DNA from: Paenibacillus sp. E222
GTDB taxonomy: Bacteria; Bacillota; Bacilli; Paenibacillales; Paenibacillaceae
Assembly: GCF_013401555.1 (NCBI RefSeq)
Contig: NZ_CP058552.1
Span: 6,572,001-6,636,000 of the forward strand
Direction of reading: 5' to 3'
Length of the DNA: 64,000 bases
Shown: positions 1 to 45,994 of the stretch, in pieces
How the letters are laid out: every line of letters starts with the position of its first letter
Position numbering within the stretch: position 1 is the stretch's first letter
Program-made: the position numbers and the translations under genes
Notes under the pieces: model-generated
What the model saw: the letters and a program-made list of their open reading frames with translations, nothing else
What the model was told of the DNA's origin: nothing
The model's database searches: none

Positions 1-364
1 TCACATAGATTTTGGATATCCCACGCTCTTTCAGAATCTCATTGGTTTTCACAACAGGAAATTTAATTTGAAACTTCTTCATATTTTCAGAGATTTTGAA
101 CGTTCCGCTCTGATAATCCACGAGTTGAATATAGATTTGGGCTTCCCGAAGCTGACTCTCTGTAAAAGAGTCAATATCAAGCGATTGGGAGAGCGGGTTC
201 ACACCGATTTGATTTGTAATCCATTCAATTTTGTCCTTCAACTGCTGCTCGACTTCCTGATATGAATTAAAATAAACAAAAGCGTAGATCACAACTCCCC
301 AAAAAATGAGCACGGCTGCCAAGATGCCTGAATACCACGCGGTTAATCTTAACCGAATGGACAT
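1..364 (-). CDS. Sensor histidine kinase, N-terminal part (cut by window edge)
   Basis: This is the first 121 codons of a membrane sensor kinase; the rest lies left of the window. The ATG at 364 follows the stop of the response regulator by one base (TGA-C-ATG), so the two are co-translated partners. The protein opens MSIRLRLTAWYSGILAAVLI and has one strong membrane helix at about residues 9-31. It then enters an extracytoplasmic sensor segment. That arrangement is normal for an OmpR-partner kinase with a HAMP, HisKA and HATPase part to follow, but those domains are not visible here. The HtrA-type protease just upstream suggests an envelope or protein-quality signal; this is inferred from position only. 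Confidence 0.85.
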   Translation of the reverse strand, partial: MSIRLRLTAWYSGILAAVLIFWGVVIYAFVYFNSYQEVEQQLKDKIEWITNQIGVNPLSQSLDIDSFTESQLREAQIYIQLVDYQSGTFKISENMKKFQIKFPVVKTNEILKERGISKIYV

Positions 365-42076: not shown

Positions 42077-42442
42077 ATGAATTTTCTGGGACATGTCGTG
42101 CGATTTATCATCGCCGCAATTGTATTGATGGTCGTCAGCTGGATCGTACCCGGATTTGCAGTAGGTGGTTTCTGGAGCGCACTTATGCTTGCTCTGGTTA
42201 TTGCACTGCTCGGCTGGGTTGTTGAAGGCATCTTCGGTAAAAGGGTTAATCCTTTTGGCCGGGGTATTGTCGGCTTCATCGTCAGCGCACTGGTGATCTG
42301 GATTGGTCAATATGTCGTAGATCATGTGCATGTCAGTCTGCTTGGTGCTGTTCTGGCTGCATTGGTCATTGGGATCATCGATCTGTTCATCCCGGTTTCC
42401 ACCCCTTTTGATGCCGGAAGAAGGTCGAAAGATCACGCATAG
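42077..42442 (+). CDS. YvlD-type (phage holin IV) small membrane protein
   Basis: A 121-residue membrane protein with four helices and the signature NPFGRGIVGFIVSALVIW, of the YvlD group. AAAGGAGG precedes ATG 42077. In Bacillus YvlD is part of an envelope-stress operon (yvlABCD), where it has no known lysis role. The gene stands alone here between mutS2 and a lipoprotein gene. Confidence 0.85.
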   Translation: MNFLGHVVRFIIAAIVLMVVSWIVPGFAVGGFWSALMLALVIALLGWVVEGIFGKRVNPFGRGIVGFIVSALVIWIGQYVVDHVHVSLLGAVLAALVIGIIDLFIPVSTPFDAGRRSKDHA

Positions 42443-42471
42443 GCTCCACGTACACTCTCCATAGGCTTCCC

Positions 42472-42516
42472 CTAAACCTCTGATGGCTTAAACGCCTGAA
42501 GAGGTTTATTTTTTGG
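42472..42516 (+). terminator. Terminator of the YvlD-type gene
   Basis: TAAACCTCT pairs with AGAGGTTTA, followed by ATTTTTTG. Confidence 0.85.
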
Positions 42517-42645
42517 GGGTTATAAGCATGCCCGGATGTTCAAAAAAACGACATAGGCAGCATGTACAGGCATCGACAATTTGCGGTATGATGACTGGAG
42601 CAATCATTCAAATTTTATCCATATCACGCTTTTTAAGGAGGCAAT

Positions 42646-43032
42646 ATGATGAAGAAAGGCATGGCATGGCTCGCAGCCTTTATGTTGATTCTGGTCCTTG
42701 CTGCCTGTGGTGGAACTGGACAATCCGCAGAATCAAATGGCGAGTCCGATTCGGGTGCAACTGCAAGCGAAGAACTGGTAATCAAAGCAAGCAACTATGA
42801 ATTTGACCAACCTGAATACCATTTGAAAAAAGGTGTCCCGGTTAAGATTGTTTATGAAAATACAAACGGAAACCATGGTGTTCTCGTGCCTGAGCTGAAC
42901 CTTCGGCTGGATACCAAGAACAATTCCAAAGTGATTACTCCCGACAAGGCAGGGGAATTTGAAATGTCCTGTTCCGTCTTTTGCGGAAGCGGTCACAGCA
43001 GTATGATCTCCAAAATTATTGTTGAAGAATAG
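42646..43032 (+). CDS. CuA-domain lipoprotein (cytochrome oxidase subunit II-like)
   Basis: A 128-residue lipoprotein; the lipobox LAAC ends at C21, then a Ser/Gly/Glu linker. The cupredoxin fold at about 42-128 carries H77 (NGNHGVLVP), C109, C113, H117 and M120 (CSVFCGSGHSSM). These are the binuclear CuA ligands of oxidase subunit II, in the correct spacing C-x3-C-x3-H-x2-M. The backbone glutamate of the usual CSExC is valine. There is no membrane hairpin, so it is not a normal subunit II. A copper or electron-carrier role outside the membrane is likely; the partner is unknown. AAGGAGG precedes ATG 42646. A promoter-like TGTACA-18-TATGAT lies upstream. Confidence 0.82.
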   Translation: MMKKGMAWLAAFMLILVLAACGGTGQSAESNGESDSGATASEELVIKASNYEFDQPEYHLKKGVPVKIVYENTNGNHGVLVPELNLRLDTKNNSKVITPDKAGEFEMSCSVFCGSGHSSMISKIIVEE

Positions 43033-43043
43033 TGTTCAAGACA

Positions 43044-43076
43044 AGGAGCCCCCGTAGGACGGGAGCTCTTTCTTTA
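43044..43076 (+). terminator. Terminator of the CuA lipoprotein gene
   Basis: CCCGT pairs with ACGGG and outer GAGC with GCTC, then TTTCTTTATT. It also faces the end of the coiled-coil gene. Confidence 0.7.
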
Positions 43077-43135: not shown

Positions 43136-45856
43136 CTAGGTCTGATCCTGCTCAATCAATTCAATCCATTCGTTATATTCCGTCTGCAATTTCGTATATT
43201 CATCCCTCAATTGGCGGTATTCCGTATTCAGTTGCTCCGCCTTCTCCTGCTCCATCTCACGTTCAACCTGCAGCAAACGTAACTGATTGGCCGCGAGTTC
43301 ATACCGCTCACCGATGTCCAGCAGTTCATTTTCCATCGTCTGCTTTTCTTCGATTGCTTCCGCACGCTGCTGGGCAAGCTGCTGCCGCTCGTGTTCCAGC
43401 TCTTCTACCTTCTCCACACTGGCAGCACTTTCTTTCTGCCAGAGATTCAATTCATTCTCCAGTGCAGTCCATCGTTCTTGCCAGGACTGCTCCTGAGCCG
43501 TCCATTCATCTGCACGACGTTGCCAAACCTGATCTTGTTGTTCCGCATGTTGTTCTGCTTGTTCTACCCTGGAGCTTAGCTCAACTTCCCGAGTAGTCAG
43601 CTCTTGCAGGCGAGAGGAGAGCTCTGCCTGTTTGGCAGACAATTCTTCATGTTTAATCTGCCACTCAAGTGCTTCTTCTTCTGTCTGAGCCAATAAGCTG
43701 CCTTGTTCATCGATCCGTTCAGATAGCCGATTGGCATTCTGCCTGGACTCTTCAAGCGCACGCAAGATTTCTTTCTTTTCTTCGCTCATCTCATTCAGCT
43801 GGCGAGCATAGTCTTCTTCACGCTGCAGTGCATCACCATATTCCTTGCGGATTTGTTTATAATTTTCCTGCAGCTTGTTTAGCTCTTCACGTGCATCATT
43901 CAATTCACCATCAAGCTCTTTATGTTGCAGTTCCAGACGACCAGCTTGTGCAATGTAACGTTCTGCTTCTTCGCTGGCGTGACGAGCTTCTTCTTTAACA
44001 ACAGATAATTCATCATGAAGGGACTGCACACCAGACTCCAACGTTTCATTCTGTTCTGCAGCTTCAAGTACCTGTGTCTCTAATTCACCGATCTCGATCA
44101 GACGTTGTTCAGCCTGCTCTTTCCAGGACTGCTCGCTCTGCGTCAGTGCACCGAGCTCATGTTGCAATGTGCGTACTGCCGCATGGGCCTGCTCAAGCAC
44201 TTTTTGCAGCCTGCGCTGCTCATCCTCAGACTTCACTTCAGCTTCACGAAGTTTCTTGACTTCCTGTTCGAGCTGTCCGTGCTGCTCCTGTACTTTTCGC
44301 AGCTGTGCGGTCAGAGAAGATTCACGTTCAATGGTTTCGTTATACTGCTGTTTCCATTGCTGCTCCGCTTCCCGGAACTGCTCCGCCTCAGCTTCTGTGT
44401 TGCGGAGTTGTTCAGTCAGCTGAGCACTATCTGCTTTTAATTGTTCCAGCTGCTGCTCCAATTCCGTAATTCTACGAAGCTGAATTTCCTGTTCCTGCTT
44501 GTATACGGCTTGTTCTTTGCGCAACGTTTCAGTCTGACTACGTTCGTGTTGGAGTTGTTGCTCCTGATCCACAACAACTTCTTGAGCATTCTTGAGCTGC
44601 TTACGCACCTCGGCTAATTGACTTTCAACATCGGCTAAGCGAGATTTAGCCTGTTCACGCTCTTCTTCCAACTGCTGCTTCAGCTTGCCTCGTTCTTCTT
44701 CCAGCAAAATCTCAGCAGTTACCGCAGCTTCGCTCGCCTGAGTCTGGGCCGCTTCATGGATTTGCTGAATCTGCTCTTCATAGGCCGCTTCTTTTTCCAT
44801 CCATTCCAATTCGGCCTGTTCGGATGACTCCTTGAACGTAGCATTCAGCTGTTCAATCTCAGCCAGTCGCTTCTGCTCTGCTTGTTGCTGCAGTGCGGCT
44901 TGTTCTTGTTTTGCCTTTTCAGTCAGTTCTTGAGCTTGATTCACGGCAGCCTGCTCTGCCTGATGTAAACGCTGCTCCATCTCGGATTGAAGTTCACGGT
45001 ATTGAAGCTGGGCTTCTTCCTGAACCTTTTGCAATTGAGCCTCGGCTTGTTCCAATTCAGACAAAATTGCCGCTTCGGCTTGTTCCTTCGCCGTTTGTAC
45101 TTGCTGTGCGGCTTGAGCCTCAATTTTTTGACGTTCTGCCATGGCCCGAGCTTCGGCTTCTTTCAGTTGAGCTACCGTCTTATCCTGCAGCTCCTTGTAT
45201 TGTGCAGCCGCTTTGGCTTGTGCTTGCTGCAATTCATTTGCGGAACGTGCCTGTGCTTCCTTCAGCTGGGCTGCCGCCTGAGTCTGTGCATTCTTCATTT
45301 GATTCGCTGCTTTTTCTTCTGCTTCTTTCAGACGCGCCTGCGCCTTCTCCTCGGCTGCTTTAAGCTGCGCCGCAGTTTGAGCCTGAAGCTTTTGCTCTCG
45401 ACCTGCTGCCTGAGCGCGCTCCTGCTCCAGGAGTGTATTCAACTTGGCTATTTCTGCCTGCTGATCCTTCTGGAGCTTCGCGATGGCTTGTTCCGCCTCA
45501 GCCTTAAGCTTCAATGCTTCAGCGAGTGCTTGGTCACGGCGTTCCAGTTCCTGCTGATGTTCATTTTGTATGGCATTCAACCGATTGAGTTCATTTCTCA
45601 TTTCGGTACGTTCACCGGTCAGCATTTTCAGCTCATTTCGAATTTCCTGAGTCTGAAGAGACTGCTCAGCCATATGTACAGCTGCCAGAACTGCAATACG
45701 CGGGGTATCCAGTCGGGAATGATGTTTGGAGATGGCGCTCATCCGCTCATCCACCAGGTTAGCTACTTGTTTCATATAGTCGGCACTGCTGCCAACCAGT
45801 TTATAGGAAGTCCCGTAGATCTCTACGGTGACGCGTGTACGATCAGGTGTAGTCAC
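43136..45856 (-). CDS. zapA: ZapA-domain protein with giant coiled coil
   Basis: A 906-residue protein. Residues 9-75 are a ZapA domain: VTVEIYGTSYKLVGSS, DYMKQVANLVDERMSAI and LDTPRIAVLAAVHMAE. ZapA normally is 80-110 residues and cross-links FtsZ filaments. Here the domain is followed by about 800 residues of near-continuous predicted coiled coil without a membrane helix, very rich in Glu, Gln, Ala and Leu. Residues 164-339 are 16 hendecad repeats. The start is GTG 45856 with AAGGAGGG seven bases earlier. It follows pheT as zapA does in Bacillus, which supports orthology, with a terminator between. I see no frameshift. The C-terminal coil has no other recognised domain. Confidence 0.85.
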   Translation of the reverse strand: MTTPDRTRVTVEIYGTSYKLVGSSADYMKQVANLVDERMSAISKHHSRLDTPRIAVLAAVHMAEQSLQTQEIRNELKMLTGERTEMRNELNRLNAIQNEHQQELERRDQALAEALKLKAEAEQAIAKLQKDQQAEIAKLNTLLEQERAQAAGREQKLQAQTAAQLKAAEEKAQARLKEAEEKAANQMKNAQTQAAAQLKEAQARSANELQQAQAKAAAQYKELQDKTVAQLKEAEARAMAERQKIEAQAAQQVQTAKEQAEAAILSELEQAEAQLQKVQEEAQLQYRELQSEMEQRLHQAEQAAVNQAQELTEKAKQEQAALQQQAEQKRLAEIEQLNATFKESSEQAELEWMEKEAAYEEQIQQIHEAAQTQASEAAVTAEILLEEERGKLKQQLEEEREQAKSRLADVESQLAEVRKQLKNAQEVVVDQEQQLQHERSQTETLRKEQAVYKQEQEIQLRRITELEQQLEQLKADSAQLTEQLRNTEAEAEQFREAEQQWKQQYNETIERESSLTAQLRKVQEQHGQLEQEVKKLREAEVKSEDEQRRLQKVLEQAHAAVRTLQHELGALTQSEQSWKEQAEQRLIEIGELETQVLEAAEQNETLESGVQSLHDELSVVKEEARHASEEAERYIAQAGRLELQHKELDGELNDAREELNKLQENYKQIRKEYGDALQREEDYARQLNEMSEEKKEILRALEESRQNANRLSERIDEQGSLLAQTEEEALEWQIKHEELSAKQAELSSRLQELTTREVELSSRVEQAEQHAEQQDQVWQRRADEWTAQEQSWQERWTALENELNLWQKESAASVEKVEELEHERQQLAQQRAEAIEEKQTMENELLDIGERYELAANQLRLLQVEREMEQEKAEQLNTEYRQLRDEYTKLQTEYNEWIELIEQDQT
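44840..45367 (-). repeat. Sixteen 11-residue (33-base) hendecad repeats
   Basis: The encoded residues fall into 16 consecutive 11-residue units without a gap: for example QLKAAEEKAQA, RLKEAEEKAAN, QMKNAQTQAAA and QLKEAQARSAN, down to KRLAEIEQLNA. Alanine and hydrophobic residues fall at fixed positions. The 33-base units are diverged in sequence, so the array is old and selected at protein level. Confidence 0.75.
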
Positions 45857-45902
45857 AGTTGTGCCCTCCTTCAAGTCTGTATGTTGATTCTAAGCTGTAA
45901 AA

Positions 45903-45949
45903 CAAAAAAAGTCACATCGATCCTCTAATGCTAAGGATTCGATGTGACT
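45903..45949 (-). terminator. Terminator of pheT
   Basis: GTCACATCGATCCT pairs with AGGATTCGATGTGAC, followed by a run of seven T on the minus strand, between pheT and the ZapA-like gene. Confidence 0.92.
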
Positions 45950-45994
45950 TCAAGCAATTCCTGCTAATCTTTGTTCAAAAAATTGACTTATGTT

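What the first reader, a model, noticed from the sequence alone, without database searches (positions are those of the whole stretch)
43136..45856. ZapA fused to a giant coiled coil: a candidate cell-division scaffold
ZapA in most bacteria is 80-110 residues. Here a clear ZapA domain (residues 9-75) at the expected place beside pheST runs without stop or frameshift into about 800 residues of coiled coil with no membrane helix. A fully extended coil of that length would be of the order of 100 nm. Such a protein could bridge FtsZ filaments to each other, to the nucleoid or to sporulation septa, a task normally split among ZapA, ZapB and EzrA-like proteins. Seen: domain order and length. Known: ZapA bundles FtsZ. 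Inferred: scaffold role.
Basis: partly seen in the sequence, partly recalled or inferred. Interest (0 to 1): 0.78.

Follow-up and report, generated by a model that had tools for sequence, protein, structure and literature searches.

The report
ZapA with a giant stretched handle
In Paenibacillus and its relatives the small protein that ties division filaments together has been stretched, in the middle of its own handle, into a rod that could be over 100 nanometres long, while both ends stayed recognisable.

Summary
Confirmed, and larger than reported. The frame (minus strand, 45856-43136, 906 aa) has a true ZapA head (Pfam 55 bits; AlphaFold head whose seven best PDB matches are ZapA) followed by about 830 proline-free helical residues. 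It is the only ZapA found in its genome. ZapA was found in 244 of 245 family members (complete frames read: 265-1608 aa); the order shows a gradient (118-1737 aa); 19 of 20 other Bacilli ZapAs read have 80-102 aa.

New: this is not simply ZapA plus a fused coil. The last 20 residues match the helix end of ordinary short ZapA, gap-free (121 of 127 caps reach 10 bits; 9 of 90,523 internal coil windows do; reciprocal test exact in 16 of 20). So the coil grew inside ZapA's own handle. Between head and cap the sequence drifts, but 50 of 54 distinct length changes are 0 or 4 mod 7, which keeps coiled-coil register.

Best reading: a stretched ZapA dumbbell that cross-links FtsZ filaments at long range; that function is inferred. 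Canonical EzrA was not detected in the order, but at least ten other sampled Bacilli without an EzrA match have short ZapA. My searches found no description in print.

The parts
43136..45856 (-). giant ZapA coding sequence, 906 aa, GTG start, stop 43136-43138
   Evidence: single ZapA match in own genome
45632..45856 (-). ZapA head, residues 1-75 (two strands, a helix, start of the long helix)
   Evidence: Pfam PF05164 E 1.1e-14 on residues 1-94; AlphaFold2 of residues 1-150: E9-14 E17-22 H25-45 H51-149, mean pLDDT 84.8; Foldseek ranks 1-7 in the PDB are ZapA structures, best E 0.0069, none at or below 0.001
44657..45409 (-). coil part 1, about residues 150-400, 11-residue (hendecad) periodicity
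   Evidence: best hydrophobic period 3.65-3.67 in the windows 176-325 and 276-425
43205..44656 (-). coil part 2, about residues 401-884, 7-residue (heptad) periodicity
   Evidence: best period 3.50-3.51 in all windows from residue 376 onwards
43145..43204 (-). C-terminal cap, residues 885-904, matches in register the helix end of ordinary ZapA
   Evidence: 33.5 bits, rank 1 of 826 windows; dN/dS 0.018, lowest of the seven segments for which it could be computed; Trp-containing motif at the end of 126 of 127 complete proteins
45900..45955 (-). terminator-like hairpin with T run between pheT and zapA
   Evidence: -24.5 kcal/mol, z -6.2 against 200 shuffles; sequence; not listed by the pattern scan
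43046..43068 (-). terminator-like hairpin after zapA
   Evidence: 10-pair stem in pattern scan; 4 such sites found in the region, 4.0 expected in shuffles, so weak

Best explanation
The protein is the organism's ZapA with its C-terminal coiled-coil handle stretched roughly 40-fold by internal growth. Shown: a ZapA head at the N-terminus, a segment like the ordinary ZapA helix end at the far C-terminus, and between them a spacer that changes in sequence and length but keeps coiled-coil register. Inferred: heads pair and grip FtsZ through its N-terminal tail, as in other ZapAs; two chains run in parallel as a rod of about 120 nm; the conserved cap makes the dimer-to-dimer contact that the same segment makes in short antiparallel ZapA tetramers. 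The result would be a dumbbell with FtsZ-binding heads about 120 nm (full overlap) to 250 nm (cap-to-cap) apart, cross-linking or spacing FtsZ filaments over the width of a Z ring instead of between immediate neighbours.
For: ZapA head. Sole ZapA match in own genome, so it presumably does ZapA's job. Own FtsZ starts MLEFDFEMESL with Phe at position 4, the position named as conserved in Gram-positives, by analogy with the Phe2 hook for ZapA (PMC12216130, passages). Cap homology: 121 of 127 caps at 10 bits or more against 9 of 90,523 internal windows and 0 of 14,784 windows of 20 frames from EzrA-like loci; 106 of 127 caps exceed every internal window; reciprocal search exact in 16 of 20 ordinary ZapAs. 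Only head and cap are recognisable across the order. Register: 50 of 54 distinct indel events are 0 or 4 mod 7 (15.4 expected if uniform). Purifying selection along the coil: dN/dS 0.07-0.13 in the five coil segments where it could be computed (undefined in one), head 0.05, cap 0.018. Short ZapAs form antiparallel tetramers through C-terminal coils and bridge filaments, and tetramerisation is described as essential in E. coli (PMC12754632, passages). AlphaFold of all 906 residues shows only the head and helices (mean pLDDT 72.1).
Against: No experiment, and no oligomer could be modelled here (single chains only). The solved Geobacillus ZapA, the nearest one, is titled a mutant dimer, so the tetramer plan may not carry over to Bacilli. 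Register-keeping indels could partly be a by-product of tandem duplication of repeat units. The full-length model has low confidence (pTM 0.25) with helix breaks at 196-238, 422-450, 604-611 and 759-770 that might be real hinges. Eight of 127 long ZapAs carry a second copy of the helix-end segment next to the head (10 bits or more), so the cap may be a duplicate and not the original end. The residue that aligns with the FtsZ-contacting Asn of other ZapAs is His61 here (mapping inferred). A precise ruler would keep its length, but complete frames in one family run from 265 to 1608 aa.
Confidence: 0.5

Rival explanations
1. One-ended arm: the head binds FtsZ, the coil reaches inward or along the membrane, and the cap docks on a different, lineage-specific partner (divisome, envelope or segregation protein).
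For: The cap has a Trp motif that none of the 20 ordinary ZapAs read has (126 of 127 against 0 of 20) and is more constrained than the head, as a new binding site would be. Streptococcal and enterobacterial ZapAs have partners, ZapJ and ZapB (PMC8687745, passages).
Against: The cap keeps the register of a segment that in short ZapA belongs to the C-terminal coil. No partner was identified.
Confidence: 0.27
2. Self-polymerising scaffold: the cap docks on the neck or head of the next rod, giving intermediate-filament-like cables that carry FtsZ-binding heads at intervals.
For: Head-coil-cap build with no other domain, heptad and hendecad coil, neck (residues 65-90) and cap conserved in near relatives.
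Against: No direct evidence of polymerisation; the variable length gives no fixed repeat across species.
Confidence: 0.1
3. Length drift without function: the coil expands by slippage of repeats and is tolerated; only head and cap matter.
For: Lengths vary widely within the family and between near relatives (895-1010 aa from the match in the pabuli-like group); one member of family f56 in a 2.4-Mb genome has only 134 aa (L116); coil sequence is not recognisable across the order.
Against: Register kept in 50 of 54 events; 92 of 108 long tails have no proline, 26 Pro in 92,766 tail residues; dN/dS 0.07-0.13; the shortest complete frame I read in the own family is still 265 aa (L087).
Confidence: 0.11
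4. Assembly, sequencing or annotation artefact joining two genes.
For: Five of 76 named loci have interrupted frames.
Against: Long frames in 71 of 76 named loci, in the rows listed for the family and most of the order, and in a one-contig genome here; the cap resembles ZapA itself.
Confidence: 0.01

Closest known systems
ZapA (PF05164), short form, e.g. Geobacillus 2mmv, P. aeruginosa 1t3u/1w2e, E. coli 4p1m, K. pneumoniae 9isj/9isk
   Same: Head sequence and predicted fold, single copy, helix end (cap) in the same register
   Different: About 800 extra coiled-coil residues between head and helix end; cap with a Trp (NEWI) not seen in the 20 ordinary Bacilli ZapAs read
ZapB and ZapJ, partners of ZapA
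   Same: Work with ZapA at the Z ring (PMC8687745, passages); ZapB is a coiled coil that extends ZapA's reach (recalled)
   Different: Separate proteins; here any such extension is part of ZapA. The same paper describes ZapB as confined to Gammaproteobacteria and ZapJ to streptococci
EzrA (PF06160)
   Same: Long helical protein that regulates FtsZ in Bacilli
   Different: EzrA is membrane anchored with spectrin-like bundles (PMC8687745 passages; PMC4243239 abstract in listing); giant ZapA has no membrane helix and no EzrA match
Crescentin and other coiled-coil bacterial scaffolds (recalled)
   Same: Long heptad coiled coil with head and tail
   Different: Sequence relation not tested

Membership tests
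ZapA | PF05164 domain above Pfam cut-off | tested here: met
   Residues 1-94: 55.0 bits, cut-off 23.8; genome search 53.9 bits. The whole protein gave no listed Pfam hit
ZapA | two strands and two helices in the head | tested here: met
   AlphaFold2; Foldseek ranks 1-7 are ZapA structures, probabilities 0.82-1.00, E 0.0069 to 1.0
ZapA | small protein of about 80-110 residues | tested here: not met
   906 aa
ZapA | C-terminal helix ending in the self-assembly coiled coil | tested here: met
   End segment found in register at the far C-terminus, displaced by about 800 residues; its role in assembly not testable here
ZapA | binds and bundles FtsZ; forms dimers or tetramers | not testable with these tools
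   Inferred from homology; own FtsZ N-terminus carries Phe4
EzrA | PF06160 match and N-terminal membrane helix | tested here: not met
   No PF06160 match; highest hydropathy of any 19 residues 0.64, in the tail 0.35
SMC | ATPase head domains | tested here: not met
   Only coil-to-coil matches far under the cut-off (36.4 of 567 bits); no other domain in the model
ZapB | ZapB family match (PF06005, number recalled) | tested here: not met
   No Pfam match of any family in the 812-aa tail at E up to 1

The most novel reading that the evidence does not exclude
A whole bacterial order runs its Z ring with a ZapA whose handle is an adjustable molecular spacer: head and cap fixed, length tuned between species from about 40 to about 1640 residues in steps that keep coiled-coil register, so that FtsZ filaments are bridged or layered at 100-nm scale by one protein that does what needs several elsewhere.
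Probability: 0.4. Interest if true: 0.85.

Novelty: new variant of a known kind. Interest (0 to 1): 0.7.

Why it matters
How far apart ZapA holds FtsZ filaments, and whether that distance matters for Z-ring coherence, is hard to test when the ZapAs at hand are all short. Paenibacillales offer a natural length series with the same head and cap. It also shows how a small adaptor can be stretched from inside, keeping both ends, instead of by adding a domain, and it corrects the picture of ZapA as always a small protein in a large group of bacteria.

Tried and rejected
Foreign coil fused to ZapA: rejected by the cap match. EzrA replacement as the cause of the lengthening: not supported as a rule. 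Hidden domain in the tail: none found. Direct DNA binding of the tail: unlikely, net charge -74. Giant ZapA outside the order: five long-looking frames were read. The 666-aa frames of G603 and G719 are 107 aa closed by TAA with a PolX-like gene behind (gene name recalled), the 286-aa frame of G623 is 123 aa, and the 354- and 267-aa frames of G642 and G596 are GC-rich readings around a ZapA of ordinary build. G680 (266) was not read. So the open_frame column can overstate length, and for lengths I rely on frames that I read myself. Synonymous rates: dS is about 0.4-0.5 in head and cap and 1.8-2.2 in the coil, undefined in one segment; saturation and misalignment are likely, so I draw only the purifying-selection conclusion. 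A tree of lengths was not built. Tandem Repeats Finder found only short arrays of about two copies in the window's own gene. G076, G144 and the second match of G016 were not followed up; a 200-base stretch of G076 was fetched and not used.

Full report
The gene. The frame lies on the minus strand, 45856-43136, 906 aa from a GTG that follows AAGGAGGG. The genome is one 7.52-Mb contig and gives one ZapA match. pheT is directly upstream, separated by a strong hairpin with a T run, so zapA may have its own transcription (inference). In 76 of 76 named relatives pheT is upstream on the same strand; mutS2 lies downstream within the fetched stretch in 60 of 76.

The head is ZapA. Residues 1-94 match PF05164 (55 bits); 2mmv from Geobacillus matches at 1.9e-11. 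AlphaFold2 of residues 1-150 with 34 sequences gives two strands, a helix and one helix from 51 to 149; its seven best PDB matches are ZapA structures, though none passes E 0.001. The organism's FtsZ begins MLEFDFEMESL. Phe at position 4 is what the cryo-EM study of the Klebsiella complex names as conserved in Gram-positives (PMC12216130, passages).

The tail is one coiled coil. 831 residues, no Pro, no Cys, 19.9% Glu, 16.0% Gln, 13.8% Ala, net charge -74, no membrane helix. Hydrophobic residues repeat every 3.65-3.67 residues at about 176-425 (hendecads) and every 3.50-3.51 from about 376 to the end (heptads); the window 76-225 is weak (best 3.62, power 5.5). Over 104 proteins of 500 aa or more, heptad windows make up 28% of the first half and 69% of the second, hendecad windows 16% and 2%, against 0.8% and 0% in shuffles, so the hendecad part is not general. 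AlphaFold2 of all 906 residues with 24 sequences shows only the head and helices, with low confidence (mean pLDDT 72.1, pTM 0.25).

How widespread. In the own family 244 of 245 sampled genomes have a ZapA match; the frames listed were 275-1616 aa (list cut by the tool). G076 had none and G144 a weak one. In the order 79 of 79 have one, with frames of 129-1746 aa. In class Bacilli 291 of 299 have one; the rows listed, all outside the own family, have stop-to-stop frames of 81-219 aa (list cut). Of 20 such ZapAs that I read, 19 run 80-102 aa from the match and one 211. In the phylum sample 122 of 139 have one; outside the own family the listed frames are 205 aa or less except six, of which I read five and found no long coil.

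Complete frames that I read, counted from the ZapA match: named loci 515-1250 (71 of 76); own family f1 265-1608; f56 134-1737 (13 read); f57 216-405 (6); f58 157 and 685; f59 173-174 (3); f60 146 and 185; f52 825; f53 118; f54 218; f55 251; f61 217. Several are already named cell division protein ZapA in public records.

The cap. 126 of 127 complete proteins have a Trp motif of the form EYNEW in the last 35 residues; the exception is the shortest, L180 of f53. None of 20 ordinary ZapAs has it. Ordinary Bacilli ZapAs end, right behind the head, in segments such as DEYFRLRQEYEELLRLLEED. A score table from those 20 segments, with coil composition as background, was run over the complete long ZapAs. 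In one search (131 proteins, 4 interrupted ones included) the C-terminal region held the best window of the whole tail in 120 (8.3 expected). In one search (127 proteins, interrupted ones dropped) 121 caps reached 10 bits, against 9 of 90,523 internal windows and 0 of 14,784 windows of 20 frames from EzrA-like loci; 106 exceeded the best internal window.

Turned round, a table from 59 caps (picked by the Trp motif, named loci thinned) found the helix end in exact register in 16 of 20 ordinary ZapAs; the misses are L184, L186, L189 and L197. Eight of 127 also keep a recognisable copy next to the head, L178 most clearly. The proteins are related, so the counts are not independent. By family, the cap ranks first in at least one member of 9 of the 11 families of the order and second in f52, behind its own head-proximal copy; f53 is too short to tell. 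I conclude that the coil expanded inside ZapA's handle, possibly after duplication of the helix end.

What is kept and what drifts. Scanning 14-residue windows of this protein against 126 others, only head and cap are recognisable across the order; TKLQTEYNEWIELI is met in 27 of 27 near, 44 of 44 other named and 49 of 55 further proteins. Near relatives also share the neck (65-90) and internal blocks at about 585-598 and 845-862. Among 28 near relatives, this one included, dN/dS is 0.05 in the head, 0.07-0.13 along the coil where computable and 0.018 in the cap.

Among 108 proteins of 400 aa or more, 201 pairs at 75% identity or more gave 54 distinct indels. Of these 50 have lengths of 0 or 4 mod 7 (p 5e-23 if independent; with coarser merging 40 of 43), as do 19 of the 22 distinct lengths (counted by hand). 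These are whole heptads, or heptads plus a stutter, which keep the core of a coiled coil. Duplication of repeat units and selection for register both predict this.

Other Z-ring proteins. SepF is present. Canonical EzrA: in a class sample of 151 genomes 95 pass the cut-off, 88 of them at E below 1e-30 (counted by hand), none of the 88 in the own family. In the order 9 of 79 pass, none over 72 bits; five of seven frames scanned from EzrA-positive loci, all from the order, join a TPM domain to an EzrA-like part. That type occurs in 2 of 40 genomes of the own genus and not in the own genome, which has a 295-aa TPM frame. The EzrA scans scored only 8 or 15 candidates in most genomes, so a divergent EzrA could be missed. 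At least ten sampled Bacilli without an EzrA match have short ZapA, so absence of EzrA does not imply long ZapA.

Mechanism. In E. coli and Klebsiella, ZapA tetramers with a dimer head at each end bridge FtsZ filaments, and tetramerisation through the C-terminal coil is described as essential (PMC12754632, PMC12216130, passages). If the giant keeps that plan, its heads sit about 120 nm apart and the cap makes the contact that its short counterpart makes. This step is inferred. The nearest solved relative is a mutant dimer (2mmv), which tells nothing for the tetramer. A one-ended arm with a new partner for the cap is the main rival.

Print. Nine searches combined ZapA, FtsZ, EzrA, Paenibacillus, coiled coil, Firmicutes and fusion. 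I saw listings with titles and starts of abstracts (10 of 131 papers, 10 of 34) and none describes long ZapA. The library holds only open-licence papers, so this is no proof of absence.

Noticed in passing
L138, L145, L147, L148, L150 (other Paenibacillales): Proteins of about 790-900 aa that join a TPM_phosphatase domain to a divergent EzrA-like helical region (L150 just below the EzrA cut-off) and mostly end in Gly/Ser-rich SGGSNW or SGGSKW. L139, outside the order, has an EzrA with a long N-terminal extension.
   Followed up: partly
proteins (loci not traced): Indels of 49, 98, 196 and 245 residues suggest 49-residue (seven-heptad) repeat units in some lineages.
   Followed up: no
window 42077-43032, + strand: A lipoprotein with weak CoxB/cupredoxin similarity (under both cut-offs) and a Phage_holin_4_2 gene sit between zapA and mutS2, where B. 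subtilis has cvpA and polX (recalled). Their relatives are met in 59 and 62 of 76 named loci.
   Followed up: partly
window 45674-45676, - strand (ZapA residue 61): His stands where other ZapAs have the Asn that contacts FtsZ Phe2 (mapping inferred); nearly invariant in near relatives.
   Followed up: no
G076, G144, G016: In the family survey G076 had no ZapA match, G144 a weak one and G016 two; causes not examined.
   Followed up: no
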